Source of the DNA: Candidatus Methanoplasma porotermitis
GTDB lineage: Archaea > Thermoplasmatota > Thermoplasmata > Methanomassiliicoccales > Methanomethylophilaceae
NCBI GenBank assembly: GCA_031290095.1
Contig: JAITOF010000011.1
Location: 1 to 32,335 of the forward strand
Direction: 5' to 3'
Length of the DNA stretch: 32,335 nt
In this document: positions 3,012 to 25,051 of the stretch, in pieces
Position numbering within the stretch: the first letter of the stretch is position 1
Layout of the letters: every line of letters starts with the position of its first letter
Notes under the pieces: model-generated
Databases searched by the model: none
Told to the model about the DNA's origin: nothing
The model's input: the letters and a program-made list of their open reading frames with translations, nothing else
Program-made: the position numbers and the translations under genes

Positions 3012-4517
3012 ATGACGCCTGAACACCTGAGACAACTGCTCGCCAAAGGCGAAGGATTGACGATCGAATACAAAGAATGCATGAACGAGCTCAACAACAG
3101 CGTATGGGAAACAGTCTGCTCGTTCTCCAACCGCTATGGCGGGCACATCGTCATCGGCGCAGATGACGACGGCACGGTATTGGGTGTGAACCGCAAAGCG
3201 GCGCCGTCGATGAAGAAGAACTTTGTCAACATGCTGAACAATCCGCAGAAGATATCCCCGTCGCTGTTCCTCAGCCTTGAAGAGGTCGAGGTGGACGACA
3301 GGTTGCTTCTGTATGTCTACGTCCCCGTCAGCGCGCAGGTCGAGCTATGTTCCGGTAAGATATACGATCGCATCGAAGATGCCGACATCGACGTCACCAA
3401 ATCGACGGATTTGTCGGCGCAACTGTTCGGACGCAAAGCAACGGCATATACCGAGCGCGAGATATTCCCATACGTCACCGAGAACGAGTTGCGTCTTGAC
3501 CTTGTGGAGCGGGCGCAGAAGATGGCCGTCGCGTTGAACGCCGACCACCCTTGGAAAGGCATGGCGCCAATGGAGCTGCTCCGCAGCTCGGGGCTTTATG
3601 AGGATGACTGGAGAACAGGCAAGAAAGGGTTCAATCTCGCCGCTGTGCTGCTCTTCGGGCGAGACGACGTGATACGATCATGCGCGCCAGGCTACCTGAC
3701 AGATGCCCTGCTTCGCGTCAAGGATGTTGACCGCTACGATGACCGCTTGCTCGTGGGCACGAACCTGATAGAGGCTTACGACCAACTGATCGATTTCATC
3801 TCAAAGCATACGCTAGACAAGTTTTTCCTCGTAGAAAACCATCGTGTGAGCGTCCGCTCGTGGATTGCACGCGAGGTGGTGAGCAACATATTGGTCCATC
3901 GCGAGTTCTCAAAGGGATTCATGGCGAAGCTCGTCATAGAAAAGGACAGGCTCTACGCCGAGAACTGGAACCGTTCGAACCGCCATGGGCGCATTGACCC
4001 TGACAACTTCACGCCCGACGCGAAGAACCCGCTCTTGGCATGGTTCTTCGTCAACATTGGCCGGGCGGACTGGATGGGATCCGGCATTCGCAACCTTTAC
4101 AAGTACACAAAGATCTACTCGGGCGGCGAGCCTGAGCTGATAGAGGGCGACATTTTCAAGACGATAATCCCGCTCGCAAAAACATCTACGCCAAGTGGCG
4201 ATGATGTTGGCGTAGATAATGGCGTAGATAATGGCGTAGATAATTTGGATGATGGCTATGTACAAAATGGCGATGATGTTGGCGTAGATAATGGCTATGA
4301 TGTTGGCATCGAAATCAACATCGCTAAAATCATAAACGCCATTTTGACAGAGCCGAAAGCCACACAAATCAGAATTGCAGAAGTCACCGGCTTATCAATA
4401 CGCACCGTGTCGAGAGAGATCAAGAGTCTGCGCGATTCGGGCGCATTGCATCGCATAGGCTCCGACAGAAAAGGCCGTTGGGAGATAGTCAAAAGGCGAC
4501 GCGATGACGAAGATTGA
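3012..4517 (+). CDS. AlbA_2 (Schlafen-type) / HATPase / winged-helix putative regulator
   Basis: The protein is 501 aa. Residues about 10-125 match the AlbA_2 divergent DNA-binding domain, with IEYKE and the GGHIVIGADDDGTVLGV core. Residues about 280-390 resemble the RecG-C/HATPase_c_4 module, with REVVSNILVHREF and GRIDPDNF followed by GSGIRNL. A linker rich in GVDN repeats (about 400-435) joins these to a C-terminal winged helix with RIAEVTGLSIRTVSREI. The family is usually annotated as a transcriptional regulator or ATP-dependent helicase-like protein, and its molecular role is poorly defined. The gene starts 52 bases after the tRNA CCA and is paralogous to the gene at 4656. It has no obvious Shine-Dalgarno site. 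The organisation suggests an accessory cargo gene inserted beside a tRNA. Confidence 0.85.
   Translation: MTPEHLRQLLAKGEGLTIEYKECMNELNNSVWETVCSFSNRYGGHIVIGADDDGTVLGVNRKAAPSMKKNFVNMLNNPQKISPSLFLSLEEVEVDDRLLLYVYVPVSAQVELCSGKIYDRIEDADIDVTKSTDLSAQLFGRKATAYTEREIFPYVTENELRLDLVERAQKMAVALNADHPWKGMAPMELLRSSGLYEDDWRTGKKGFNLAAVLLFGRDDVIRSCAPGYLTDALLRVKDVDRYDDRLLVGTNLIEAYDQLIDFISKHTLDKFFLVENHRVSVRSWIAREVVSNILVHREFSKGFMAKLVIEKDRLYAENWNRSNRHGRIDPDNFTPDAKNPLLAWFFVNIGRADWMGSGIRNLYKYTKIYSGGEPELIEGDIFKTIIPLAKTSTPSGDDVGVDNGVDNGVDNLDDGYVQNGDDVGVDNGYDVGIEINIAKIINAILTEPKATQIRIAEVTGLSIRTVSREIKSLRDSGALHRIGSDRKGRWEIVKRRRDDED
4209..4244 (+). repeat. 12-bp tandem repeat, three exact units, inside a coding linker
   Basis: Three exact copies of GGCGTAGATAAT encode GVDN repeats in the linker before the winged-helix domain. 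Partial copies recur at about 4279-4292. The unit is a multiple of three, so slippage would change linker length without a frameshift. Confidence 0.92.
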
Positions 4518-4530
4518 TTACATAGAACCT

Positions 4531-4620
4531 GCATGTAGGCAGACAGAGAACACTGGCGCAGGACTCAGGGCCCAAGGGGACAAATCCTTCCCGCATGGGT
4601 TCGAATCCCCTCCCTATGCA
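4531..4620 (+). pseudogene. Decayed tRNA-Leu (CAG-type anticodon)
   Basis: The 3' half is clearly tRNA-like: GGGTTCGAATCCCC, then CCTATGC and A4620. Further upstream GCGCAGGACTCAGG resembles a leucine tRNA anticodon arm with anticodon CAG, and TCCTT could be its 3' stem after an intron-like insert. The 5' acceptor would be GCATGTAGG, with two extra bases against CCTATGC. The D-arm is not recognisable, the variable arm is shortened and the T-stem has a mismatch. The acceptor sequence differs from the tRNA at 2857, so it derives from another leucine isoacceptor and is not a simple copy of that gene. Confidence 0.65.
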
Positions 4621-4655
4621 TCACAAGACATGGCTGTTAACTGGAAGACGAGGAC

Positions 4656-6059
4656 ATGATATTCGGGCAAGAATCTGAAACGCTGGCATTCAAAAAAACC
4701 ACAGGCGAGGCAAAGGAGGCGGTCGTCGATGTCGTAGCCATCCTGAACAAGCACAATCGCGGCGAGGCATACTTCGGCATAAGAAACGACGGCCAAGTGC
4801 TTGGACAGGCAGTATCTGAATCCACGCTTCGAGACGTGAGCCGAGCGATGACCGACAACATAAAGCCGCAGATCTACCCAACTATCGGGACAGTGAGCAT
4901 CGACAACAAAAAGTGCGTTCGCGTTCAATTCGAGGGCGAGAACGTTCCATACTTCGCATACGGCAAAGCCTACATCCGCGTTGCCGACGAGTGCAAGCAA
5001 TTGTCCCCGGCAGAGCTTGAGTGCTACTTCAAGAAGAAGCAGGGGCAAGTCTCGACATGGGACTCTGACGATTCTGGCAAGGCCGTCGAAGATGTCAACA
5101 CCAACTTTCTCCGCTCATACATGAAAAAGGCCAAGGAAAGCGGGAGGCTCGACTACACGTTCACGAACCGGGAAGACGTCCTCAGCCGCTTGGAGCTGCT
5201 CGAAGACGACAAGGTCGCCAATGCCGCCATAGCCATGTTCGGCAAGAGGCCGCAGACGGAGATACAGATGGCAATCTTCGCAACAAACGTGAAACACACC
5301 TTCATCGACATAGACAGGCAGAAGGGGACCATCTCTGACCTGGTGGATATCGGCGAGAAGTACATCAGGCGCAACATGAGGTGGCGCGTGGTAGTGGACG
5401 GCTCGCCGGAGCGCATGGAGATACCGGAAGTGCCTATCGTCGCCATGAGGGAGGCGCTTTTGAACTCCTACGTCCACAGGGACTTCCGCGTGTCTCTGAC
5501 GAACGAGATCGCCATCTACAGCGACCGCATCGAGATATACAACCCTGGCACATTTCCTGAAGGGTTCACGCCGGGGGACTTTATCGGAGGCTCGGGGAAA
5601 TCAGTCAGGCGCAACCCGTTGCTTGCACAGATCATGTATTACTCCAAGGACATCGAGAGCTTTGGCACAGGGTTGCAGAAAATCGCCAGGGAATGCGATG
5701 CGGCAGGCGTGCGTTACGGATTCGACCTTGGAAAACTCGGCTTCTCAGTCATATTCTACCGTTCAGACATTGCGCCTGCGGACATCAGCGCCGCAGAGAA
5801 TGGCACCGATAATGGCACCGATAATGGCACCGACGGCATCGCCGTCAATGTTGCGGCACGCCTCGTGCTTGACGCCATCAAAGCGGACAGTCAGATATCG
5901 GTAGATGAGATCATAGCGAAAGTTTCCAAGAGCAGAAGAACGGTGCTGAGGGCGATCGCCACGCTTAAAGATGTGGGGTTGCTGAGAAGGATCGGCTCCG
6001 AGAGGAGCGGAAGCTGGGAGACGGTCAAAGACGGCCGCGACGGCGACCGATCGCATTGA
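4656..6059 (+). CDS. AlbA_2 / HATPase / winged-helix putative regulator, paralogue
   Basis: The protein is 467 aa, with a GAGG ribosome-binding site just before ATG 4656. N-terminal AlbA_2 features are TLAFKKTTGEAKEAVVDVVA and GEAYFGIRNDGQVLGQAV. The middle and C-terminal part carries REALLNSYVHRDF and RIEIYNPGTFPEG, then FGTGLQKI, matching the HATPase_c_4 module. A GTDNGTDNGTD linker precedes a winged helix (VDEIIAKVSKSRRTVLRAI) ending in RRIGSERSGSWETVK, which is close to the end of the 3012 protein (RIGSDRKGRWEIVK). It begins 36 bases after the decayed tRNA-Leu, repeating the tRNA-plus-AlbA_2 arrangement. Function is inferred to be DNA- or RNA-binding regulation; the target is unknown. Confidence 0.85.
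   Translation: MIFGQESETLAFKKTTGEAKEAVVDVVAILNKHNRGEAYFGIRNDGQVLGQAVSESTLRDVSRAMTDNIKPQIYPTIGTVSIDNKKCVRVQFEGENVPYFAYGKAYIRVADECKQLSPAELECYFKKKQGQVSTWDSDDSGKAVEDVNTNFLRSYMKKAKESGRLDYTFTNREDVLSRLELLEDDKVANAAIAMFGKRPQTEIQMAIFATNVKHTFIDIDRQKGTISDLVDIGEKYIRRNMRWRVVVDGSPERMEIPEVPIVAMREALLNSYVHRDFRVSLTNEIAIYSDRIEIYNPGTFPEGFTPGDFIGGSGKSVRRNPLLAQIMYYSKDIESFGTGLQKIARECDAAGVRYGFDLGKLGFSVIFYRSDIAPADISAAENGTDNGTDNGTDGIAVNVAARLVLDAIKADSQISVDEIIAKVSKSRRTVLRAIATLKDVGLLRRIGSERSGSWETVKDGRDGDRSH
5799..5834 (+). repeat. 12-bp tandem repeat in the linker of the second AlbA_2 gene
   Basis: Three units of AATGGCACCGAT (the last ends in GAC) encode NGTD repeats. The DNA differs from the 4209-4244 array, yet the encoded hinge is similar in composition and position. 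Confidence 0.9.
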
Positions 6060-6125
6060 ACTTGTGCGGACCGTAAGAGATAACGCGAGCTTCCTGTCGG
6101 TCTTGGCGCTGGGCGCGTTCTCGCC

Positions 6126-7289
6126 TCATGAATTGGGCCGCCGGGACTGTTTCCTCACCCATAACTTCTTGAAATGGTCGTGGGAATAGTTCAACAGCTC
6201 CTTGTCCGTGAGGCAGACGGACGACGGGCCGACCCTGGCATAAAACTTCTCTTCCCTGCCTTCCCTGAGGAACACCGGCCGGTTGCTTTTCAGACACATC
6301 ACGCGGAGAACCAGCTTGCCGTCGATGTCTGCCATCCTGATGGAGATAAAATGGATGAACTCCTTGCCGATGCACTTGGTCACCAGGCTGGTGAGGTGCA
6401 GCTCCATGTCGTCGGGGCTGGAGAACTGTTCCGTGTCTGCGCCATCCACAGTGCCGTCGTTGCTCACCCCTATCAGCAAGTTTCCTCCTTCGCTGTTCAT
6501 GAACGCGACTATCGTCTTCAACACCACCATCTCCATGCGCGAGTCCTGTTCGCCGGTCTTGATGTTCGTGGAGAGCGTGGATTTGAACTCGACTGTCTCA
6601 CACTCGCCTAGGCTTACAATCTTCCAGATCTCCCTGTAGGCGATGTCCTTCGGGCTGTCGATCCACAGATTGTTGCTGTCGTATTCCATGATGATGAATT
6701 TGAACACGAGGGCGTCTGGGCCTATGTAGAACAGAAAACATAAGATTGCCGACGTGACGAACGTGATTATCAGCTCGCGCATAACCTTTGCGTACTCGGG
6801 CATCAAGGGATTCTGATATCCGTTTATGGTGTCGCCGAAGGAGAACAGCACATACTGGATGATCATTAACATGGAGAACAGCGACAGAGAACACACGAAC
6901 GACAGGAACAGCGAGAATATCGGCCTGTCGTTATCCGTGCCGGGTTTAGCGTTAAGGCTCACATACGCTAGAATCAGCCCGGATATTCCGATGACCAATC
7001 CTGCCAGCATCTCGATTATAATCTGGGCATAGGGGCTGTCCTTGAGGTCGATTATAGCGACGAAATATGCAATGATCCCCAGTGTCAGATATATCGACAG
7101 AGGGGGGATGCGTGCGGTGTCGCGATTGAATATGATTGCGGCGGTGGCGGAGAACAAGGCGGGAATGGTGGAGGCCGCCTCCACAAAATGACCGTATGCA
7201 AGAGTTATGAGGAAGACCGTGGCCGCAATCGCATCCGCGACGATGAACATCCCGTAAAGGACTTTGCTGATACGTCTTCCCGTGAACAC
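6126..7289 (-). CDS. Membrane-anchored AlbA_2 (Schlafen-type) domain protein
   Basis: The protein is 387 aa from GTG 7289; an internal Met14 (codon at 7250) is an alternative start. The first 200 residues contain about six hydrophobic helices, for example GMFIVADAIAATVFLITLAY, IIIEMLAGLVIGISGLILAY and ELIITFVTSAILCFLFYIG. A cytoplasmic AlbA_2 domain follows at roughly residues 225-375, with ETVEFKSTL, FMNSEGGNLLIGVSNDGTVDGAD and a late ARVGPSSVCLTDKEL. There is no HATPase or winged helix. Fusion of a polytopic membrane domain to AlbA_2 suggests a membrane-tethered nucleic-acid-binding or nuclease-like sensor, possibly in defence; this is inference. It is convergent with the gene ending at 6059. 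A run of 11 G lies about 26 bases upstream of its start. Confidence 0.8.
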   Translation of the reverse strand: MFTGRRISKVLYGMFIVADAIAATVFLITLAYGHFVEAASTIPALFSATAAIIFNRDTARIPPLSIYLTLGIIAYFVAIIDLKDSPYAQIIIEMLAGLVIGISGLILAYVSLNAKPGTDNDRPIFSLFLSFVCSLSLFSMLMIIQYVLFSFGDTINGYQNPLMPEYAKVMRELIITFVTSAILCFLFYIGPDALVFKFIIMEYDSNNLWIDSPKDIAYREIWKIVSLGECETVEFKSTLSTNIKTGEQDSRMEMVVLKTIVAFMNSEGGNLLIGVSNDGTVDGADTEQFSSPDDMELHLTSLVTKCIGKEFIHFISIRMADIDGKLVLRVMCLKSNRPVFLREGREEKFYARVGPSSVCLTDKELLNYSHDHFKKLWVRKQSRRPNS

Positions 7290-8267: not shown

Positions 8268-8609
8268 TCATCTTCTGTTGTACGTGTCGTCGAAGTTGTT
8301 GAAGACGTTGTCCGTGTAGTTGTTTATGCGGACCGAGTCCTGCTTGTCCGGGACGATGAACCCTTTTATAGGGAACTCCGAGTCGCAATGAGGGCATCGC
8401 ACGTTAGGGCAGTTCTGGTTGGCCTGCGGGCAGAACTTGCAGGCTACGGCCCTGGACTGGAAGAGGCTGAACTCCCTGCCGCAGGCGGGACATAGGAACC
8501 TCCGGGCCGCGACCTTCAAATCTTTAGTGATGTTGGCAGACCGCTCTTCCGGAGTGATCCACATGGGCTCTTTCAACGATATCGGGCGGCTGTATGCGGG
8601 GTCGACCAT
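8268..8609 (-). CDS. Seven-cysteine zinc-ribbon protein
   Basis: The protein is 113 aa. The core holds CPAC, then ACKFC, then NCPNVRCPHC, so the cysteines form a CxxC / CxxC / Cx4CxxC pattern likely to bind zinc. The following DSEFPIKG is also found in the protein at 21375-21689, which has the same spacing and the same FSL..AR.xAC block. The two are clearly paralogues. The N-terminus (LKEPMWITPEERSANI) differs. It lies 4 bases after GGGP synthase and ends the lipid operon. Possible roles are a nucleic-acid or protein adaptor; nothing more specific can be supported. Confidence 0.75.
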   Translation of the reverse strand: MVDPAYSRPISLKEPMWITPEERSANITKDLKVAARRFLCPACGREFSLFQSRAVACKFCPQANQNCPNVRCPHCDSEFPIKGFIVPDKQDSVRINNYTDNVFNNFDDTYNRR

Positions 8610-8613
8610 GAGC

Positions 8614-9351
8614 TCAAGACCCCTTGGATGCGTCGACGACGGCTTTCAACATGTTGTTGTCGGCGCAGCTCTCGATGAACGTCCCGGTGACGATCGCGTC
8701 TGCGCCAGCCAGCCTGGCCGCGGCCGCGGCCGCAGGGGTCTTAATCCCCCCGCCGATTATCAACGGCACGGTTATTGCTTTTTTCACGGCAGAGATCATG
8801 TCGGGAGGCACGGGGGCGTCGGCGCCGCTTCCTGCTTCCAGATATATGAAGTCCATTCCCAGGAGCTCGCATGCCAACGCATATCCTGCCGCCTTGTCGT
8901 TCTGGCCGTGCTTTATCGGCTCGGCCTTGCCGACCTCGCCCACCTTCATCCCCGGCTCCACGATTATGTATCCCAGGGAGATCGTCTCGATCTTGAGTTT
9001 TTTGACATATAGGGAAGCCGTCGCCTGGGCGCCTATTATCCAGAACGGGTCTCTGCTGTTGGCCATGCTCATGAAGAACATGGAGTCCACCTCGCCAGAC
9101 AGCTCCGCCGGGCCGCCTGGGAAGTGTATGGTCGGAAGCCCTGACATCTCTTTGATGGCGCGTGCGGTGGCGCCGAGGTTCGCGCTGTTCACGCCGGTGG
9201 ACCCGCCGATCATTATGGCGTCGGTCCCGGCCTCTTTGACTTTTCTTGCTATGATCCCGGCCTCGGCGCTGTCCTGCTTGTCAGGATCCAGAAGGGCCAG
9301 ATGTATCGTCCCCTGTCTTATCCTCTCCGTAAGATACTCCTTCACACTCAT
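8614..9351 (-). CDS. Geranylgeranylglyceryl phosphate synthase (GGGPS)
   Basis: This TIM-barrel prenyltransferase joins geranylgeranyl diphosphate to sn-glycerol-1-phosphate, the first ether bond of archaeal lipids. It is 245 aa, normal for the family. Visible markers are LALLDPDKQDS near the N-terminus, IMIGGSTGV, THFPG-type segment TIHFPGGPAELS, YLEAGSGADAPV, and the phosphate-binding VPLIIGGGIKTPAAAA followed by AGADAIVTGTFIE. The start is ATG 9351; the reading frame is open further upstream, but that part is the shadow of the overlapping UbiA-type gene. ATG overlaps the upstream TGA as ATGA, so translation is coupled to DGGGP synthase, the next pathway enzyme. Confidence 0.95.
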   Translation of the reverse strand: MSVKEYLTERIRQGTIHLALLDPDKQDSAEAGIIARKVKEAGTDAIMIGGSTGVNSANLGATARAIKEMSGLPTIHFPGGPAELSGEVDSMFFMSMANSRDPFWIIGAQATASLYVKKLKIETISLGYIIVEPGMKVGEVGKAEPIKHGQNDKAAGYALACELLGMDFIYLEAGSGADAPVPPDMISAVKKAITVPLIIGGGIKTPAAAAAARLAGADAIVTGTFIESCADNNMLKAVVDASKGS

Positions 9352-10163
9352 AAGACGACACCCAATACGAACGCGGCCAGCGCTACCAGCATGGCAATCT
9401 TCGCCAGCTTCTGGGCCTTGTGCGCGTTGCGGAAAATGATGAAGGCCGTATAAATAAAGATTGCGTCTGCGACGAACACCAGGCAATAAAGGGGCCCGAA
9501 GGTATGGTCGACAAGGGGCCAGACGCTCAGGGCGGGCCCCGCTATGAAGAACACCGCTCCGACAGCGGCGGCATTCCTCGCCCCCAGCGCCATAGGCAGG
9601 GTCTGCCTTCCTTCGTCGGAGCCCATGTCCTCTATATCCTTGGCTATCTCCCGTCCGACGTTGACGAGAGCAGACATCGCGCCCATCACGGCAACGCTCC
9701 AGACGTCGCCGACTATCGACCCTCCGAAAAGAAAGACCATGCCTGTGAGCGCCGCGACAACAATGTTGCCTACAAAACCCCTTTGTTTCAGGAGAGCCTC
9801 GTAGGCTACCATGAGGGCGACGGCGGCGATCACCATGCCGGTCACCTGCACAGACTGCAGGAGCGACGAGACGGCGATCGCAACGGCGAGGCATACGATG
9901 CCAAGGCATAGCGCCGTGGCCGGCTCGATCTCCCCCTTGGGCAAAGGCCGGTCCGGATGTCCGGCCTTGTCTATCTCCCTGTCCACGTAGTCGTTCAAGG
10001 AGTTGCCTCCTGCGATAGACGCTACGACGACGGCGCATCCGACCAGGACCTCGAACAGGTAGTCAACGATGTCGGCGTCTACGGCTATGACCGCGCCTAT
10101 GACCACGCCAACTATCCCGATCGCCCCGTTGCCGAGCCTGAAAAGTCGGAGATACTCCTTCAT
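9348..10163 (-). CDS. Digeranylgeranylglyceryl phosphate synthase (UbiA family)
   Basis: This membrane prenyltransferase adds the second geranylgeranyl chain to GGGP to form the diether precursor of archaeal membranes. It is 271 aa with many hydrophobic helices. The two Asp-rich motifs of the UbiA superfamily are present: NSLNDYVDREIDKAGHPDRP near residue 55, and REIAKDIEDMGSDEGRQTLP near residue 170. The stop overlaps the start of GGGPS by four bases. The pairing with GGGPS strongly supports the assignment over menaquinone or heme prenyltransferases, which share the fold. Confidence 0.94.
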   Translation of the reverse strand: MKEYLRLFRLGNGAIGIVGVVIGAVIAVDADIVDYLFEVLVGCAVVVASIAGGNSLNDYVDREIDKAGHPDRPLPKGEIEPATALCLGIVCLAVAIAVSSLLQSVQVTGMVIAAVALMVAYEALLKQRGFVGNIVVAALTGMVFLFGGSIVGDVWSVAVMGAMSALVNVGREIAKDIEDMGSDEGRQTLPMALGARNAAAVGAVFFIAGPALSVWPLVDHTFGPLYCLVFVADAIFIYTAFIIFRNAHKAQKLAKIAMLVALAAFVLGVVL

Positions 10164-17862: not shown

Positions 17863-18696
17863 TCAAATCGACGACGGAGGCACCCAGTCGTCGTTGTAAG
17901 TCATGGCATCGCCGAACACGACTTCATTTCCTAGGTCCAATGTCATCAGGTCGCGGGCCGCCACTGCACGCAGGCCCGTGCGCTCCTCCGCCAAGGCGGC
18001 CTCGGTCTCCGGGCCACGCTTGATCATCACGATGCCGAAATGGATCATGACTGTAAGCTCAGGCTTCACGACGGACATGAACTTCGCCGCGTCCTCCGTG
18101 CACAAGTGGTAGTGGATGCGGAGGTCCCACGGCGTCGTCACGGGGAGGATCAGAACCCTGGAGCCCCTGTACTGCACCGCGATCTCCGGGCTGAACGAGG
18201 TGTCGCTCACGTATGACACGACTCCTGCGTCGGTGTGGAACCTGAACCCGACGTTCGTGGGGTCGCTGTGCTCCGCACGGCAGACCTCCGTGCGCAGGCC
18301 GTCGATGTCCAGCACGTCGCCCGGCCTGAACACGCGCGTTCCCGAGACGATGCTCTGATGGTACCTGGAAACACATGGGCCGAGGCCACCCTCCCCGTCT
18401 ATGACAGTGGGGCTTCCGTAAAGGCACCCTCTTTTCTTCCATCCGCCGCATGTCATCCCTTCGAGGACGCATTCGGCGTCAGAATAGTGGTCTGGATGGG
18501 CGTGGGACACGATGACCGACGAGGTCCTTGCAGGGTCGTAATGTATCTTTCTCATCTGCACGAGGGCGCTCGGCCCCGGGTCCACATGTATGGTCCCGCC
18601 GGGGTGCTCCATCAGCATCCCTCCGGTGGAGCGGGCCTGGTACATTGTGGTGTGCCTCCCGCCGCCGGTCCCGAGGAACGTGATCTTGAATCCCAT
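17863..18696 (-). CDS. Metallo-beta-lactamase-fold hydrolase
   Basis: The protein is 277 aa. The family motif HAHPDH (SSVIVSHAHPDHYSDAECV) gives the metal-binding histidines and aspartate. Further ligands are likely in CRAEHSDPTN, VSYVSDTSF and VMIHFG. The N-terminus KITFLGTGGGRHTTMYQARSTGG, with its GTGGGR loop, resembles the PhnP and RNase Z-like branch that cleaves phosphodiesters, but the substrate cannot be named. It lies downstream of the DUF1638 gene on the same strand, with its own TATA box that predicts a leaderless mRNA starting at ATG 18696. It may therefore be linked to the corrinoid operon by function or only by position. Confidence 0.88.
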   Translation of the reverse strand: MGFKITFLGTGGGRHTTMYQARSTGGMLMEHPGGTIHVDPGPSALVQMRKIHYDPARTSSVIVSHAHPDHYSDAECVLEGMTCGGWKKRGCLYGSPTVIDGEGGLGPCVSRYHQSIVSGTRVFRPGDVLDIDGLRTEVCRAEHSDPTNVGFRFHTDAGVVSYVSDTSFSPEIAVQYRGSRVLILPVTTPWDLRIHYHLCTEDAAKFMSVVKPELTVMIHFGIVMIKRGPETEAALAEERTGLRAVAARDLMTLDLGNEVVFGDAMTYNDDWVPPSSI

Positions 18697-18716
18697 GCAC
18701 GCCTCATGCCGTTCAG

Positions 18717-18727
18717 GATATATCCAT
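18717..18727 (-). promoter_or_regulatory. TATA box of the metallo-hydrolase gene
   Basis: The reverse strand reads ATGGATATATCC around here. The centre is about 25 bases before ATG 18696, which predicts a leaderless transcript. Confidence 0.7.
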
Positions 18728-18735
18728 TTTTTGAA

Positions 18736-19356
18736 TCAATTCGAAGAGCCGGCGCCAAGCTTCTTCGCCCTGGCTACGGCCTCCTCTATCCTTTCCAGGC
18801 CGCATATGCAGCGCTCATGCCTGAGCTTCAGGGTCTTGGCGAAGTCTTCGGACTTGGCGTGGAACTCTTTCTCGCTCCCGATGCCGGGGTCTATGAAGAG
18901 GCACCTTTCGTAGGACCCGAACAACATGTCGAGGAAATAGGACGGGTCGTACCCCTCAACCGAGTCCAGATGGAACTCCCTGATAAGGCCGTTGACGCCT
19001 TCTTTCGCCCATCCAGGGGAGGAGAACCACGTCCCGGTGCAGCTGCGCTTCTCCTCTTCGTACCTTTCCGTCCCGAGGAGCGCCTCTATGCAGTCGGACC
19101 CCTCGAGCATCGCGGCAGGGACGTCGAGCTTGTCGGTTATCCCGCCCAGCGACATGCACGTGGCATATCCGAGGAGAACGGCGTCCACCTTGCCTTCGAG
19201 CGCGTTCACCTTCTCGATTATGACGGCCCTCATGTTCTCGGGAATTATGTGCAACGCGAACTCCAGGTATTCCCTGTGAACGAAGTCCGGGTCTTTCCCG
19301 GTGACGAACTCGATCTCGTTCTTCAGTATGTCGCATGCAACGATTCCAAGTCTCAT
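18736..19356 (-). CDS. DUF1638 domain protein
   Basis: The protein is 206 aa. The opening MRLGIVACDILKNEIE, the DAVLLGYATCMSLGG segment, the EGSDCIEALLGTERY segment and a late SYERCLFIDPG match the DUF1638 pattern as I know it. The protein has seven cysteines, several in the middle of conserved blocks, so metal or corrinoid-related chemistry is possible. Its start lies 9 bases after the stop of the HyuA-like gene, with a GGGGG ribosome-binding stretch overlapping that stop. DUF1638 genes are often found with corrinoid methyltransferases in methanogens and anaerobic bacteria; no reaction is assigned. Confidence 0.8.
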   Translation of the reverse strand: MRLGIVACDILKNEIEFVTGKDPDFVHREYLEFALHIIPENMRAVIIEKVNALEGKVDAVLLGYATCMSLGGITDKLDVPAAMLEGSDCIEALLGTERYEEEKRSCTGTWFSSPGWAKEGVNGLIREFHLDSVEGYDPSYFLDMLFGSYERCLFIDPGIGSEKEFHAKSEDFAKTLKLRHERCICGLERIEEAVARAKKLGAGSSN

Positions 19357-19365
19357 AATGCCCCC

Positions 19366-21369
19366 TCATGCCGCGGTGTGGAACTGCCGGGGCTTCCCGA
19401 CGGCGGTCAGGACGACCTCTATCTCAAGGAGGGCGTTCCCGGCGCCCAGGCCTCCGCCCACGTCATATCTCTTTTCTTTTATATCCGTCTTGACGTCCAC
19501 GTAGTCGGCCCCGGCTTTCCCCGCCTGTTCGACCACGAACGCACGGCCTTCCGTGTCCGCATACTCGAGAGCGGCGCTTATCGTGTCGAAATCCAGCTTG
19601 CCCAGAGCGGAGAACACGGTGCATGGCGGATTGTCGGACCCGGAGCCTCTGGGCCTTATCAAGAGTTCCAGCGTCTCGGCCACGCTCCCGGTTACAGCGC
19701 CTATCGCGTTGCCCACTTCCGAATGTTCTGGGAGCAGGAGCTCTGCACCGAATATCTCTGCCACTTGCGGGAAGTATGCCGCGACAGGGGCGCCGATGCC
19801 GATTATCGGCTTGTTGAGGCCGATCCGCACTCTGAAGTCCAGGCCGTCCTTCCTCGATATGGCTTTGTTCATGAGGTCCAAGCCCACGCTGTCGATCTCC
19901 AGTTTTCTTGTTTCTTCGAAGAACAGCTTTCTGAGAAGCTCCTGCGACAGCTTCTCGACGACCTTTTGCTTGGCCAAGGCTATGAACTCGACGGGAGGAA
20001 CTCCCAGCCTCTTTGCGGCATACGCCACTCCGAAGGACGAGGCTTCTGGGTCGTATTGGACGTACGAGCGCTCCGCATGGAGGAGGTCGGTGGGCGTGAG
20101 GCCGATGCGTTGGATCAGCCCGTTCTCTTCCATCTTCGCGACCGTAAAATCGAACGCATGTATGCCAAGGGCCGCGCTAGCCTCCCGTAGAGAAAAAGGC
20201 TCTTCGGACACAAGGTCCAGGAACCGCCTGTTGTCATCGGACAGGTTCTCCCCCCCGACGGTTTTTACTTTAACGAAGAATTCGGAATCCAGCACGACGT
20301 TGTCGATGCCCAGGCTTTCCGGGGTCTGTCGCGGGACGGTTTCGGAAACGGCTTTCAGCCGGTCTTTGAGGCGCGGCCATCTGCTTGCCGCGATGCACAA
20401 CGGGACGACGCGCGACGCGCTCAGCGTGAGCCTGCCGTTGTTGGCGACGATCCTGCTGTCCCCGCCTATCCCGGAGGTGGATATCTCGGCGGCAAGGACG
20501 CGCGTCCTCCTTCCGCCGATGACGGCGCCTTCCTTCTCGAGCCTAGGCTGTCCGTTGCGGAGGATCCCGATGTCAGTCGTGGTGCCTCCCATGTCCATCA
20601 CGATGGCATCCTCCTTTCCCGTGAGGCTCTTGGCGCCTATCATGCTCGCCGCAGGGCCCGAAAGGATGGTCTCGATGGGCCTGGACGAGGCAACCTCCTC
20701 CCCCATTATCGTCCCGTTCCCTTTGACTATGAGGAGCGGGGCCTTTATGTCGACGTCCCTCATCACCGCCTTCACGGATGTGATGAGCTCTTTTATTATG
20801 GGGATCAGACGGGCGTTCATTATCGAAGTGACGGCGCGCTCGTTGAATCCCAGGCTCGACGACAGCTCGTGCCCGCACACGACTGGCACGTCGAGGCGGT
20901 TTTCGACGATCTTCTTCACGCGCACCTCGTGGTCGGGATTTCTGACGCTGAGGTACGATGTGACGGCAACTCCGTCCACCCTGCCCACGAACGATTCGAC
21001 GGCGGCTTCGACTGCATCCTCGTCTAGAGGGGATGCCTCCTTTCCCTTGAGGTCATGGCCTCCGTCGACGAAGGCGTACGCATCGACGGGGATGGACCCG
21101 TCGAACTCGCGCCCCACGGAGACGAGGCCTACGCGGCAACCCTTCCCCTCGACCACGGAGTTGGTGGCGAGAGTGGACGAGAGGGACACCATCACCACAT
21201 CCTTGAACAGGCTTTTGTCGAAGTTCTTCACGGCGTTGCCTATCCCTATCGAGAGGTCGTCCCTCGTCGTGAGGGCCTTCGCTTTTCTGACGACCTTCCC
21301 GTTGGACAGGTCCATCAGCACGGCGTCAGTGTACGTTCCTCCGGTGTCGAATCCCAGCCCGATGCCCAT
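19366..21369 (-). CDS. Hydantoinase/oxoprolinase (HyuA-like) ASKHA-fold ATPase
   Basis: The protein is 667 aa from ATG 21369, with GGTGA 5-6 bases upstream; GTG 21378 would add three residues. The N-terminus GLGFDTGGTYTDAVLMD (D8 to D15) and a second phosphate motif VMDMGGTTTDIGIL (259-270) are the nucleotide-binding signatures of the ASKHA superfamily, and ETILSGPAASMIGA is typical of HyuA. Classical N-methylhydantoinase and oxoprolinase enzymes need a HyuB partner, which is absent here. It lies between a zinc-ribbon gene and DUF1638 in a corrinoid operon. Corrinoid reductive activators also use an ASKHA-like domain, so a role as ATP-driven activator is as plausible as amide-ring opening. 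Both are inference. Confidence 0.88.
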   Translation of the reverse strand: MGIGLGFDTGGTYTDAVLMDLSNGKVVRKAKALTTRDDLSIGIGNAVKNFDKSLFKDVVMVSLSSTLATNSVVEGKGCRVGLVSVGREFDGSIPVDAYAFVDGGHDLKGKEASPLDEDAVEAAVESFVGRVDGVAVTSYLSVRNPDHEVRVKKIVENRLDVPVVCGHELSSSLGFNERAVTSIMNARLIPIIKELITSVKAVMRDVDIKAPLLIVKGNGTIMGEEVASSRPIETILSGPAASMIGAKSLTGKEDAIVMDMGGTTTDIGILRNGQPRLEKEGAVIGGRRTRVLAAEISTSGIGGDSRIVANNGRLTLSASRVVPLCIAASRWPRLKDRLKAVSETVPRQTPESLGIDNVVLDSEFFVKVKTVGGENLSDDNRRFLDLVSEEPFSLREASAALGIHAFDFTVAKMEENGLIQRIGLTPTDLLHAERSYVQYDPEASSFGVAYAAKRLGVPPVEFIALAKQKVVEKLSQELLRKLFFEETRKLEIDSVGLDLMNKAISRKDGLDFRVRIGLNKPIIGIGAPVAAYFPQVAEIFGAELLLPEHSEVGNAIGAVTGSVAETLELLIRPRGSGSDNPPCTVFSALGKLDFDTISAALEYADTEGRAFVVEQAGKAGADYVDVKTDIKEKRYDVGGGLGAGNALLEIEVVLTAVGKPRQFHTAA

Positions 21370-21374
21370 TCGTA

Positions 21375-21689
21375 TCACCTGTTGTGCTCGAGCCCCATGT
21401 CATGGTTGTATTCGTTGACGACGTTGCAGATGTGGTCCGCAATCGTCCTCTCCTGCACATTCCCATGGACATGGCCAAGATCTTGGATCGGGAACTCGGC
21501 GTCGCATTTGTCGCACCTGACTTTGGGACAGCCGCGGCTTGCCTCGGAACATCCCCTGCAGGCGAACGCCCTGGCATACACCAGAGAGAACATGAACCCG
21601 CAATGAGGGCAGGCGTACTTCTTGACTGAAGCCGTGGTCTCGTAAGAGAAGCCGCTGTTCTTCATAGCATCATAGAACGCGTTGCTCAT
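21375..21689 (-). CDS. Seven-cysteine zinc-ribbon protein of the corrinoid operon
   Basis: The protein is 104 aa, with AGGAAGGGG just before ATG 21689. The core reads CPHCGFMFSL, ARAFACRGC, GCPKVRCDKCDAEFPI, with the same seven-Cys spacing as the protein at 8268-8609. The C-terminus (HICNVVNEYNHDMG) ends in a short helix with Cys and His. Its TGA is followed one base later by the extended frame of the HyuA-like gene, so they are translationally close. As a small cytosolic zinc protein inside the operon it could be an adaptor or metal-delivery subunit; there is no direct evidence. Confidence 0.75.
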   Translation of the reverse strand: MSNAFYDAMKNSGFSYETTASVKKYACPHCGFMFSLVYARAFACRGCSEASRGCPKVRCDKCDAEFPIQDLGHVHGNVQERTIADHICNVVNEYNHDMGLEHNR

Positions 21690-21698
21690 TCCCCTTCC

Positions 21699-22787
21699 TC
21701 AGTACTGTATCGACCCTTCTTTCTTCACGACATCGACCACGGCTCCGATGTTCTCCAGCCTCGTGGCCACGTCAGGAGGTATCTCGCATCCGCTCGCGAT
21801 GCAGTATCTGGATTTGAGCCCGCGCTTGCAAAGGGCGGTCTTGACTTCCTGGGTCACTTCGGACGTCGCCTTCCTTATCTGCGCCTCGGTGCCGCTGAGG
21901 AACAGCTGTGGATCTATGTTCCCGCCGATCAGAGCGTCGTCAGCGTATCCGTCCGCGATGACTTTGGACGCAGACGGGGAGTCAGGGTTGAACGGATAGT
22001 ACGCCATGGAGTAGATCGCAGGCTTGTACTCCTTGATCTGAGTGTCCAGATGGGGCATGTCTGCGCAGTTGTGGATGCAGACTGCGAGGCCTTTGTCGCG
22101 CGTCAGCTTGTTCAGCTTATGGGCGTATTGCGCCTCGAACTCGTGGTATTCCGCGTCCCCCAGGCAAGAATAGTTGCCCCAGAGGTAGTCCCAGCAAAGC
22201 CCTGCGGCCCCCGTTTCGGCAAAGCCTTCGACGAGACGGGAGTCGTACTCGGTCAGGGTCTCGAGGGCGCCGTGCACGGCGCTCGGGTTGAGGGCGAGGT
22301 CTAGGAACAGCCTCTCTGCGCCCGCGCTCTGAGAAAGAGCGAGCAGAGGCCCCTCTACGAACCCGGCGGTTATCACGTCGTTCTTCAGAGCCTGCGCGAA
22401 CAGCTTCGTCCCTTCCAGAAGGACGGCGGACCTCCCTTTGGTTATGTCCGGGACTTCAAGCTTCTCGTAGTCCTCGGGGTCATGGATTATGTGCTTGTCG
22501 ACGAAGGGCGTGTTCTCCTGGTCGAACCTCACGTGCGCGCCAAGGTCCCCGGCCATGACCGAGAGGTCCATCAGGCCGATCGCGAAGTCGAAGTCGTATT
22601 TCTTCTGGCCTTCTATGAAGGACTGGGCGTACAGCTTGGGGTCGTGCGCCCACTCCCTGTAGGTGACGCCTCCGTTGACAAGCCTTCTGTTGACGCCCAT
22701 CGCGAGAGGATACGTCGTCAGCCTGTCGACAGGCTCGTTCTGAAGGGCCGCAAGGCCTCTCTCGATGTGCGTGAGCGGCTTCGTCAT
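21699..22787 (-). CDS. UroD-family corrinoid methyltransferase (MtaA/MtbA/CmuA-like)
   Basis: The protein is 362 aa from ATG 22787, preceded by AGGAGGTG inside the end of the corrinoid gene (TGATG overlap). The UroD fold is evident from NEPVDRLTTYPLAMG, PDITKGRS and a GGNIDPQLFLSG strand. The zinc site expected for MtaA and MtbA, HxC plus a distant Cys, is present as H239-N-C241 and C334 in CIASGCEIPP. In methanogens this family moves the methyl group from a corrinoid protein to coenzyme M; other branches (CmuA, MtsA and O-demethylases) act directly on methylated substrates. With no other methyltransferase in the operon, either role is possible. True uroporphyrinogen decarboxylase is unlikely because it lacks this zinc site. 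Confidence 0.88.
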   Translation of the reverse strand: MTKPLTHIERGLAALQNEPVDRLTTYPLAMGVNRRLVNGGVTYREWAHDPKLYAQSFIEGQKKYDFDFAIGLMDLSVMAGDLGAHVRFDQENTPFVDKHIIHDPEDYEKLEVPDITKGRSAVLLEGTKLFAQALKNDVITAGFVEGPLLALSQSAGAERLFLDLALNPSAVHGALETLTEYDSRLVEGFAETGAAGLCWDYLWGNYSCLGDAEYHEFEAQYAHKLNKLTRDKGLAVCIHNCADMPHLDTQIKEYKPAIYSMAYYPFNPDSPSASKVIADGYADDALIGGNIDPQLFLSGTEAQIRKATSEVTQEVKTALCKRGLKSRYCIASGCEIPPDVATRLENIGAVVDVVKKEGSIQY

Positions 22788-23425
22788 CACAGCACCTCCT
22801 TGAGCCACGCGACGTGGTGTATCGCGTCGTTGTCCTTGTGGTCCGCGCCGATCTCGTCGGAGAACGTTTGGGATACTGGCGCGCCGCCTACCGCGACGAG
22901 GACCTTCGAGCGGTATCCGCTCTCTTTGAGGCCGTCCACGGCGTCTCTTATCGAAAGCATCGTGGGCGTCATCAGGGTGCTGAGGGCCAGCACGTCCGGC
23001 TTCTTGGACTCGGTCGCCGCCAGCACTTCCTCCGTCGGGACGTCCCTGCCGAGGTCGATGACCTGATACCCTCCCGCGATGATCAGGGTTTTTAGGATGT
23101 TCTTCCCGATGTCGTGGACGTCGCCTTCTACGACCGCCACCGCCACCGTCTTCTTGGCGACGGACTCGCCCTTGGGTATCGCGGGGAGGAGGACGTCGAG
23201 CCCCGCGTACAGCGCCTGCGACGATATCAGCACCTGAGGCAGGTATGCCTGGTGTTGCGCGAACCTGTCGCCCACGATCGCCATCCCTCTCACGAGGCCG
23301 TCGTTGATGGCCTCAATAGGCCTGACGCCGTTCTTCAGCGCCTCTTCGGAGCCCTCTTTGGCGACGGCGGGCTTCCCGTTAACCACCGCGTCGCTTATTT
23401 TTTTTAAAATCTCTTCCTTGCTCAT
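22787..23425 (-). CDS. Methyltransferase corrinoid (cobalamin-binding) protein
   Basis: The protein is 212 aa. The N-terminal four-helix cap is at residues 1-85 and the cobalamin-binding Rossmann domain follows. VEGDVHDIGKN holds the DxHxxG signature, with H104 as the lower cobalt ligand; STLMTP and VAVGGAPVS complete the cofactor pocket. It belongs to the MtaC/MtbC/MttC/MtmC group, and the exact subgroup cannot be told by eye. A GGTGA ribosome-binding site lies 7 bases before ATG 23425. It is first in the operon and would carry the methyl group between the substrate and the UroD-type protein. Confidence 0.93.
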   Translation of the reverse strand: MSKEEILKKISDAVVNGKPAVAKEGSEEALKNGVRPIEAINDGLVRGMAIVGDRFAQHQAYLPQVLISSQALYAGLDVLLPAIPKGESVAKKTVAVAVVEGDVHDIGKNILKTLIIAGGYQVIDLGRDVPTEEVLAATESKKPDVLALSTLMTPTMLSIRDAVDGLKESGYRSKVLVAVGGAPVSQTFSDEIGADHKDNDAIHHVAWLKEVL

Positions 23426-23755
23426 ATTGTTTCACCGCCGTTTATGGTCATATTGATTGATACCGAGACAGGTAATATTCCAATGATATTTAATTATCTT
23501 TATTGTTGTGCGAATAATACCATTATATAAATATAATATGAATATATTATTCCTATAAACTATAATTAAGTCATATAATATCTTAAATTGACATATTTAA
23601 AACAATAATTGAAATTTATTCAATATAATCATGTAATATGTTGATGTTATTGACCATATTAGGAATAATAATCCATAAAATATGTTCAGAAATGAAGACT
23701 AGCCTCATTCCCAATTCTTATAAACGCGGCACCCCATCCGCAAAGAGGTAGGAAA
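23426..23755. other. Very AT-rich divergent promoter region
   Basis: It separates the corrinoid operon (leftward) from the amidohydrolase (rightward) and differs sharply in base composition from everything around it. Many TATA-like stretches occur. Perfect inverted repeats include TATTATTCCT (23545-23554) with AGGAATAATA (23661-23670), and TATGGTCA (23443-23450) with TGACCATA (about 23651-23658). No ORF is supported. The length suggests regulator sites or a long untranslated leader for the corrinoid operon. Confidence 0.65.
23715..23726 (+). promoter_or_regulatory. TATA box of the amidohydrolase gene
   Basis: TTCTTATAAACG lies about 36 bases before the TTG start. Transcription would begin near 23746, leaving a short leader that still contains part of the GAGGTAGGA ribosome-binding site. 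Confidence 0.65.
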
Positions 23756-25051
23756 TTGTCAAAGACAACCGTCATCAGGGACGCATGGATCGTGACTCAG
23801 GACCCTCTGAGGAGAGTGCTCAGGGGCGACGTCGTGATCGACGGAGAGAAGATCGCATCGGTTGGAACGAGATATGAAGGCTCTGTCGACACGGAGATCG
23901 ACGCGTCCGGGGACATTGTGATCCCCGGGCTTGTCAACACGCACACTCACATCGCCATGTCCGTGATGAAAGGCGTCGTCGACGACCTCCTGTTCCCCGA
24001 CTTTCTCGACAAGGTGTTCAAAATAGACTCCGACAGGACCGACGAAGACATCTCGACAGGAACAAAACTGGGTTGCATGGAGATGATGCGCAGCGGGACC
24101 ACGACTTTCGTGGACATGTACTATTCCGAGGACGTAATCGCAAAAGCGGTGAAAGAGGCGGGGCTCAGAGGAGTGCTGTGCTGGTGCGTCCTGGACCAGC
24201 AGTTCACCACCCAGAAGGGAAGCCCCCTGAAAAACTGCAAGAGCTTCTGCGACCGGTTCAAAAACGAACGGAAGATAATCCCGGGCGTCGCGCTCCAGGG
24301 CGTCTACGTTTGCAACGAGGAGACCTGTGTCAGCGCGAAAGAGCTCTCCGACGAGGCGAAGGCGCCGATCACATACCACCTTTCAGAGACGAGGGGGGAG
24401 GTCAACGAGCATAAGAGGAAGACCGGGAGGAGGCCGGCGGAATGGCTGTCAGACATAGGCGTCCTCGGCGAAAGGGGAATAGCCGCGCACTCCGCATGGC
24501 TGACGATGAACGAGGTCAGGCTGATGGCTAATGCCAGGATGTCTGTCGCGACGTGCCCCGTATCCAACATGAAGCTGGCCACCGGCGGGGTCGCGCCCGT
24601 GCCAGAGTTTCAAAAATACGGCGTGAACGTCTCCATCGGAACAGACGGAAGCACCACCAACAACAGCCTGGACATGATATCGGAGATGAAGATTCTGGGC
24701 CTTCTCCAGAAGTCGAGCAGATGGGACCCCACGGTCACTCCGGCGCAGGACCTCTTGGACTTCGCGACGATCAACGGCGCCAAGGCGATAGGGATGCAGG
24801 ACGCCCTCGGCTCAATAGAGCCAGGGAAGTATGCGGACATAGTGATCCTCGACGGGAAGGCGCCTAACCTGAGACCGCTCCTGTACGAGAACGTCATAGC
24901 CAACCTGGCGTACTCGTCGTCGTCGGCCAACGTCAAGACGGTCATATGCCAGGGGGACACGGTCCTTCTGGACGGGAAATATACTACGTTGGATGCCGGG
25001 GGCGTCCTCGCCGATTCTGAAGACATGTGGAGGTCGCTGTGCTTAAGGTGA
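23756..25051 (+). CDS. dadD: Amidohydrolase, MTA/SAH/5'-deoxyadenosine deaminase type
   Basis: The protein is 431 aa from TTG 23756, preceded by GAGGTAGGA. It shows the amidohydrolase metal site NTHTHIAMSVMKG (H63, H65), the later ITYHLSETRGEVNEH and AAHSAWLT histidines, and the aspartate in IGTDGSTTNNSLDM. This set matches the MtaD/DadD branch, which deaminates 5'-methylthioadenosine, S-adenosylhomocysteine and 5'-deoxyadenosine. In methanogens the main role is salvage of radical-SAM and methylation by-products. Cytosine or guanine deaminases share the fold but fit less well. Location opposite the corrinoid operon suggests a link to methyl-group metabolism. The symbol is offered from family resemblance only. 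Confidence 0.87.
   Translation: MSKTTVIRDAWIVTQDPLRRVLRGDVVIDGEKIASVGTRYEGSVDTEIDASGDIVIPGLVNTHTHIAMSVMKGVVDDLLFPDFLDKVFKIDSDRTDEDISTGTKLGCMEMMRSGTTTFVDMYYSEDVIAKAVKEAGLRGVLCWCVLDQQFTTQKGSPLKNCKSFCDRFKNERKIIPGVALQGVYVCNEETCVSAKELSDEAKAPITYHLSETRGEVNEHKRKTGRRPAEWLSDIGVLGERGIAAHSAWLTMNEVRLMANARMSVATCPVSNMKLATGGVAPVPEFQKYGVNVSIGTDGSTTNNSLDMISEMKILGLLQKSSRWDPTVTPAQDLLDFATINGAKAIGMQDALGSIEPGKYADIVILDGKAPNLRPLLYENVIANLAYSSSSANVKTVICQGDTVLLDGKYTTLDAGGVLADSEDMWRSLCLR

What the first reader, a model, noticed from the sequence alone, without database searches (positions are those of the whole stretch)
17863..23425. Candidate undescribed corrinoid methyl-transfer system: corrinoid protein, UroD-type enzyme, zinc ribbon, HyuA-like ATPase, DUF1638 (plus metallo-hydrolase)
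Tightly coupled start and stop overlaps show one operon. No known substrate methyltransferase (MtaB, MtmB, MtbB, MttB, MtgB) and no RamA is present. The UroD-type protein keeps its zinc site, so methyl transfer is likely, but the methyl donor is unknown. The HyuA-like ATPase and DUF1638 protein are unassigned parts that may open an N-methylated ring compound, process a methoxy compound, or activate the corrinoid.
Basis: partly seen in the sequence, partly recalled or inferred. Interest (0 to 1): 0.8.

Follow-up and report, generated by a model that had tools for sequence, protein, structure and literature searches.

The report
Split Mts-type corrinoid methyltransferase operon
A methane-making gut archaeon carries a conserved set of genes that probably passes methyl groups from small sulfur compounds to its methane-forming cofactor, together with an ATP-using helper protein whose job is unknown and which recurs beside many different vitamin-B12 methyltransferases.

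Summary
The operon is real. It runs on the minus strand as corrinoid protein, UroD-family enzyme, zinc-ribbon protein, HyuA-like ATPase, DUF1638. The metallo-hydrolase was found beside no other copy examined. The genome (a Methanomassiliicoccales MAG) has a second paralogous operon. About half of 116 Methanomassiliicoccales genomes carry the module, often with a CobW-type GTPase and a His-rich protein, and the module's zinc ribbon was seen in no other order. The corrinoid and UroD proteins are a split sister group of the fused CoP-UroD proteins of Methanosarcina (MtsD/F/H architecture), not of MtaA, MtbA or MtpA. The zinc site is His-Cys-Cys, as in S-methyltransferases. So the "unknown donor" is most likely a methylated thiol or sulfide, and UroD probably does both half-reactions (inferred, untested). 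The genome has no HyuB, which argues against ring opening of N-methylhydantoins. RamA exists elsewhere in this genome and in all 116, so HyuA is not simply its replacement. HyuA recurs beside MttB-, UroD- and RamA-containing corrinoid systems in archaea and bacteria, which suggests a general ATP-dependent maturation or reactivation role together with DUF1638. Verdict: a new variant of a known kind, with a genuine open question about HyuA and DUF1638.

The parts
22787..23425 (-). corrinoid protein (B12-binding_2 cap + B12-binding; base-off motif GDVHDIGKN), cognate methyl carrier
   Evidence: Pfam/NCBIfam; tree groups it with CoP domains of fused Methanosarcina CoP-UroD proteins
21699..22787 (-). 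UroD-superfamily methyltransferase, split homologue of MtsD/F/H-architecture proteins; Zn site His-Cys-Cys (HNCAD ... GCEIPP); ATG at 22787 overlaps the CoP stop (TGATG)
   Evidence: PF01208; tree and AU test; site alignment
21375..21689 (-). 104-aa double zinc-knuckle protein (CPxC ... CxGC ... CP ... CxKC), specific to this module within the order
   Evidence: alignment A2 with invariant Cys; order and phylum surveys
19366..21378 (-). orphan HyuA-like ASKHA ATPase (DTGGTYTD and DMGGTTTD phosphate motifs), no HyuB partner, no Fe-S domain
   Evidence: PF05378/PF01968; AF2 pLDDT 89 and Foldseek to acetone carboxylase beta, caprolactamase and N-methylhydantoinase alpha; no PF02538 in genome
18736..19356 (-). 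DUF1638 protein; conserved Cys8, His36, Cys67, Asp88-Cys89 at the C-terminal ends of strands, possible metal site
   Evidence: PF07796; alignment A3; AF2 pLDDT 93, no PDB fold match at E<=1e-3
17863..18696 (-). MBL-fold metallo-hydrolase, downstream on the same strand with a 39-nt gap; probably NOT part of the conserved module
   Evidence: PF12706; no homologue near any related locus
23426..23755 (.). AT-rich divergent intergenic region, likely promoter of the operon (-) and of an SAH/MTA-type deaminase (+)
   Evidence: sequence; flanking genes

Best explanation
This is a catabolic corrinoid-dependent methyl-transfer operon of a Methanomassiliicoccales methanogen. The corrinoid protein and the zinc-dependent UroD protein form a split version of the MtsD/F/H-type methyl-sulfide:coenzyme M methyltransferase. 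The UroD enzyme demethylates a methylated thiol or sulfide (methanethiol, dimethyl sulfide, methylmercaptopropionate or similar) onto Co(I) of the corrinoid protein, then passes the methyl group to coenzyme M, which feeds H2-dependent methanogenesis. The HyuA-like ATPase, the zinc-ribbon protein and DUF1638 (in many relatives also a CobW-type GTPase and a His-rich protein) are accessory factors. They most likely mature, load with metal or reactivate the corrinoid or zinc enzyme, working beside RamA (encoded elsewhere) and not on the methyl donor. Shown here: gene content, conservation, kinship, zinc-ligand motif, absence of HyuB, presence of RamA. Inferred: substrate class, bifunctionality of UroD, role of the accessory proteins.
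For: (1) UroD tree: module UroDs plus fused CoP-UroD proteins form one clade (100/98; 100/96 after removing long branches); grouping the module with MtaA/MtbA is rejected (p-AU 3.5e-48). UroD identity is 34-36% to the fused proteins against 20-23% to MtaA, MtbA and MtpA-type. (2) The CoP lies in the same 98/92 group as the fused CoP domains. (3) Methanosarcina G001 has exactly three fused proteins, as described for MtsD/F/H (PMC7374477, PMC10762971). (4) Zn ligands are His-Cys-Cys in every module UroD, the S-methyltransferase signature (PMC10418091). (5) In Methanosarcinales the HyuA gene lies directly after the fused gene, with RamA in the same cluster. (6) The module is patchy: 58 of 116 genomes of the order, with ZnR beside HyuA in 30 of 30 loci and UroD in 29 of 30, as expected of a substrate-specific catabolic trait. 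(7) HyuA neighbours across phyla are MTTB, B12-binding, URO-D, pterin-binding methyltransferase, RACo and DUF1638. (8) DUF1638 mutants of Phaeobacter are methionine auxotrophs co-fit with split B12-dependent methionine synthase and the RamA-like protein (PMC5764234).
Against: No activity data. The His-Cys-Cys site is also what any UroD-type CoM methylase (MtaA, MtbA) needs, so by itself it does not prove a sulfur donor. M. alvi, which carries mtsAB homologues (not shown to be this module), does not grow on dimethyl sulfide (PMC10673518). HyuA could act on something other than the corrinoid system. DUF1638 as a family is nearly universal in the order (114 of 116 genomes), so its presence is not module-specific.
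Confidence: 0.55

Rival explanations
1. UroD is only a methyl-corrinoid:CoM methyltransferase (MT2), and the methyl donor is processed by an MT1 encoded elsewhere (for example an orphan MttB-family or MtaB protein).
For: MtaA and MtbA are MT2 only and share the fold and zinc site; the genome has MtaB and MttB on other contigs.
Against: MtaB and MttB each have their own adjacent corrinoid protein (L023, L024). The module UroD is outside the MtaA/MtbA clade and sister to proteins with a single UroD domain that serve DMS and MeSH. No MT1 gene recurs beside the module in the related loci.
Confidence: 0.22
2. HyuA acts on the methylated substrate: an N-methylhydantoin, creatinine-like ring or amide is opened or phosphorylated, then demethylated.
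For: HyuA fold closest to N-methylhydantoinase, caprolactamase and acetone carboxylase ATPase subunits, which phosphorylate small molecules.
Against: No HyuB (PF02538) in the genome, and HyuB not seen among the families listed for immediate HyuA neighbours in 62 related loci (only 25 of 73 families shown); the same subfamily sits with MttB-, UroD- and DUF1638-type systems with different donors.
Confidence: 0.08
3. HyuA plus DUF1638 plus ZnR is itself the ATP-dependent Co(II) to Co(I) reductase that replaces RamA for this corrinoid protein.
For: ASKHA ATPase fold shared with RACo and HgdC-type activators (weak); DUF1638 linked genetically to B12 reactivation (PMC5764234); conserved Cys and His in DUF1638 and Cys in ZnR.
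Against: RamA family in 116 of 116 genomes; RamA lies in the same cluster as HyuA in L043, L053, L067, L075, L082, L084, L091, L093; HyuA has no Fe-S or RACo domain.
Confidence: 0.12
4. Anabolic or housekeeping role: cobamide remodelling or cobalt/zinc delivery, or methyl-selenide or methionine salvage, rather than methanogenic catabolism.
For: The second operon abuts CobN-ChlI-ChlD and a CobW GTPase; type 1 mlp clusters use UroD enzymes for methyl-S/Se metabolism (PMC10418091).
Against: CobN linkage was seen only in this genome; the module lacks the multiple Mlps and the RACE that define mlp clusters; patchy distribution within an obligately methyl-reducing order.
Confidence: 0.1

Closest known systems
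MtsD/MtsF/MtsH of Methanosarcina acetivorans (fused corrinoid/methyltransferase proteins for DMS and methanethiol)
   Same: CoP and UroD domains in the same order, same clade for UroD and for CoP, same HNC(A/S)D...GCE(V/I)PP zinc motif, HyuA gene next door in Methanosarcinales
   Different: two separate genes instead of one fused protein; sister to, not within, the fused clade; own ZnR, CobW and P167 partners; no chaperonin-like gene seen
MtsA/MtsB and MtpC/MtpA (split methylthiol systems)
   Same: separate CoP plus one UroD enzyme; MtsA does both half-reactions
   Different: about 20% identity to the MtpA-type protein; MtsA belongs to the SCMT clade (PMC10418091), the module UroD does not group with the MtaA/MtbA part of it
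Glycine-betaine mtg clusters of Sporomusa, Desulfitobacterium and Formimonas with 'HydA'
   Same: contain the closest bacterial HyuA homologues (42-44% identity, L044, L046) beside corrinoid proteins, labelled hydantoinase in PMC9768040
   Different: MttB-superfamily MT1 and pterin-binding MT2 instead of a UroD enzyme
Split methionine synthase of Phaeobacter and MtgBCD of Ruegeria (DUF1638 + RamA-like)
   Same: DUF1638 encoded with a corrinoid protein; co-fitness with B12 reactivation
   Different: aerobic bacteria, no HyuA reported, methionine or betaine as substrates
Type 1 mlp gene clusters
   Same: UroD-family S/Se methyltransferases plus corrinoid protein
   Different: several Mlps and a RACE in one cluster; no HyuA or DUF1638 reported

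Membership tests
MtsD/F/H | corrinoid-binding domain fused to a UroD-type methyltransferase domain | tested here: not met
   two overlapping genes in the window and separate genes in the relatives examined
MtsD/F/H | UroD domain within the MtsD/F/H clade | tested here: inconclusive
   sister clade (100/96-98), not nested; reference proteins identified by architecture, not by name
MtsD/F/H | His-X-Cys ... Cys zinc site | tested here: met
   H-X-C ... C in all module UroDs
MtsD/F/H | methyl-sulfide:CoM methyl transfer | not testable with these tools
   needs enzymology or genetics
MtaA/MtbA/MtsA (SCMT) | falls in the SCMT clade and passes NCBIfam MtaA/MtbA cut-offs | tested here: not met
   34 bits (MtaA, cut-off 400) and 55 bits (MtbA, cut-off 600); AU p 3.5e-48; MtsA itself was not available as a reference
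HyuAB hydantoinase/oxoprolinase | HyuA ATPase fold | tested here: met
HyuAB hydantoinase/oxoprolinase | HyuB partner subunit | tested here: not met
   no PF02538 in a 93.6% complete genome
RamA/RACE | RACo C-terminal ASKHA domain plus Fe-S domain | tested here: not met
   no PF14574, Fer2 or Fer4 in the operon proteins; the genome's RamA is on C24
DUF1638 (PF07796) | Pfam gathering score | tested here: met
   104.9 against 27 bits
type 1 mlp gene cluster | multiple MtaA-like proteins plus RACE in one cluster | tested here: not met
   one UroD, no RACE

The most novel reading that the evidence does not exclude
The orphan HyuA ATPase with DUF1638 (and in this order a zinc-ribbon protein and a CobW GTPase) is an unrecognised ATP-dependent maturation or reactivation system for corrinoid methyltransferases, distinct from and complementary to RamA/RACE, shared by methanogens and anaerobic bacteria that use methyl sulfides, methylamines and betaines.
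Probability: 0.3. Interest if true: 0.8.

Novelty: new variant of a known kind. Interest (0 to 1): 0.55.

Why it matters
Methanomassiliicoccales are major methyl-reducing methanogens of guts and wetlands. Half of the sampled genomes carry this module, so it may be a substrate route missing from methane budgets and from gut-methane models. The recurrence of an orphan HyuA ATPase and DUF1638 beside unrelated corrinoid methyltransferases in archaea and bacteria points to a general step in B12-dependent methyl transfer that has no assigned function and can be tested directly.

Tried and rejected
MBL-fold gene as a module part: no homologue near related loci. SAH/MTA-type deaminase (23756-25051, +) as a methylthio-substrate supplier: strong homologue beside none of the other module loci. 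CobN/ChlID as a module part: adjacent only in this genome's second operon. HyuA as RamA substitute: RamA is universal in the order and clustered with HyuA elsewhere. HyuA as hydantoinase: no HyuB. DUF1638 by fold: confident model (pLDDT 93) but no PDB match at E<=1e-3. DUF1638 by sequence in PDB: only spurious short hits. ZnR in PDB: only generic zinc fingers. One key paper (Fu and Metcalf 2015) is not held.
Full report
OBSERVATION. The window is contig C36 of a 1.6-Mb, 93.6%-complete archaeal MAG of the order Methanomassiliicoccales (nearest named relatives are Candidatus Methanoplasma). CoP/UroD overlap as TGATG and ZnR/HyuA as GTGA; UroD/ZnR and HyuA/DUF1638 are 9 nt apart; DUF1638/MBL are 39 nt apart. 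UroD starts at the ATG at 22787. The operon itself has no MT1 of the known kinds and no RamA, but the genome has MtaB (two copies), an MttB and one RamA on other contigs.

CONSERVATION. A second copy lies on contig C26 in the order CobW-type GTPase, His-rich 167-aa protein (P167), DUF1638, CoP, UroD, ZnR, HyuA, followed by CobN, ChlI and ChlD. Of 80 related loci found through HyuA, those from Methanomassiliicoccales mostly show CoP-UroD-[CobW-P167]-ZnR-HyuA-DUF1638 in varying order. Surveying the order with the ZnR alignment gives two well-separated score groups: a module type (131-191 bits) and a nearly universal housekeeping paralogue (at most 96 bits; in the window at 8268-8609). By my count, 58 of 116 genomes carry the module type, patchily within genera. 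In the 30 loci fetched, ZnR stands with HyuA in 30 and with UroD in 29, the exception lying near a contig end. In an even draw of 390 genomes from the phylum every module-type match was in this order. A DUF1638 gene lies within 10 kb of ZnR in about 21 of these genomes (my count; a lower bound because the lists are cut).

WHAT THE METHYLTRANSFERASE IS. In the UroD tree the module enzymes are sister to the UroD domains of roughly 634-aa CoP-UroD fusion proteins of Methanosarcina and Methanolobus. The clade holds after long branches are removed (100/96), and a tree that groups the module with MtaA/MtbA instead is rejected (p-AU 3.5e-48). MtaA and MtbA references were named by NCBIfam; MtpC-MtpA was recognised by its neighbouring transporter (L129). 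One Methanosarcina genome has exactly three fused proteins, which matches the three fused corrinoid/methyltransferase proteins MtsD, MtsF and MtsH described for methyl sulfides (PMC7374477, PMC10762971). I could not fetch the named sequences, so this identification rests on architecture and copy number. The corrinoid protein falls in the same 98/92 group as the fused CoP domains. Every module UroD keeps His-X-Cys...Cys, the ligand set of UroD-family S-methyltransferases; UroD-family O-demethylases replace Cys ligands (PMC10418091). A methylated thiol or sulfide as donor is therefore the best reading. That UroD performs both half-reactions is inferred from MtsA and from there being only one UroD in the operon. 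A caution is that M. alvi with mtsAB homologues did not grow on DMS (PMC10673518).

THE ACCESSORY PROTEINS. HyuA has intact ASKHA phosphate motifs and the fold of acetone carboxylase, caprolactamase and N-methylhydantoinase ATPase subunits, but HyuB is absent from the genome. Its relatives stand beside MttB-family enzymes, corrinoid proteins, pterin-binding methyltransferases, RamA/RACo and DUF1638 in Bacillota, Chloroflexota, Thermodesulfobacteriota and methanogens. In Methanosarcinales HyuA directly follows the fused gene, and a thermosome-like protein and RamA are in the same cluster in several loci. In Sporomusa and Formimonas it sits in or near glycine-betaine clusters, where PMC9768040 labels a gene 'HydA'. 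Such indifference to the donor argues for a job on the corrinoid or zinc enzyme and not on the substrate, and the co-presence of RamA (116 of 116 genomes) argues against it being the sole reductive activase. DUF1638 is linked by fitness data to B12 reactivation in Phaeobacter (PMC5764234). Its conserved Cys8, His36, Cys67 and Asp88-Cys89 lie at strand ends in a confident model without PDB relatives, which suggests a metal site (inference). ZnR has seven invariant cysteines. CobW and P167, absent from the window operon but frequent in relatives, suggest metal delivery (inference).

VERDICT. It is best filed as a new variant of a known kind: a split MtsD/F/H-like S-methyl:CoM methyltransferase with an accessory set. 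It is not a member of MtsD/F/H in the strict sense, because the defining fusion is absent. The real novelty is the accessory set. Confidence is 0.55 for the whole reading, about 0.85 for corrinoid-dependent methyl transfer to CoM, about 0.55 for a methyl-sulfur donor, and about 0.5 for HyuA/DUF1638 as maturation or reactivation factors.

Noticed in passing
window 8268-8609 (-): Paralogue of the operon's zinc-ribbon protein, next to a PcrB-family gene (8614-10038); this type is nearly universal in the order (115 of 116 genomes match) and has no Pfam family over its cut-off.
   Followed up: partly
L053 11941-13548, L056 11953-13575, L067 2883-4487: A divergent thermosome-like chaperonin gene directly follows HyuA in Methanosarcinales mts loci, suggesting dedicated folding or assembly of the fused methyltransferase.
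   Followed up: partly
L017 365-9123: In the second operon HyuA is directly followed by CobN, ChlI and ChlD (cobaltochelatase-like), a link to corrinoid synthesis not seen in other genomes.
   Followed up: partly
L023 4167-5168: MttB reading frame stops after 333 of about 469 residues, probably at an in-frame amber (pyrrolysine) codon; not checked base by base.
   Followed up: no
window 3012-7289: Three genes with Schlafen AlbA_2 domains in a row, next to a BspA-type leucine-rich-repeat protein (782-2494).
   Followed up: no
window 23756-25051 (+): SAH/MTA/5'-deoxyadenosine-deaminase-type amidohydrolase divergent from the operon; the neighbourhood is not conserved.
   Followed up: partly
L033 8018-9915, L036 1972-7847, L039 7882-9900: Extra HyuA copies: two in tandem in L033 and L039, and in L036 each divergent from an MttB or a corrinoid-protein gene; HyuA appears to duplicate with methylamine systems too.
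   Followed up: partly
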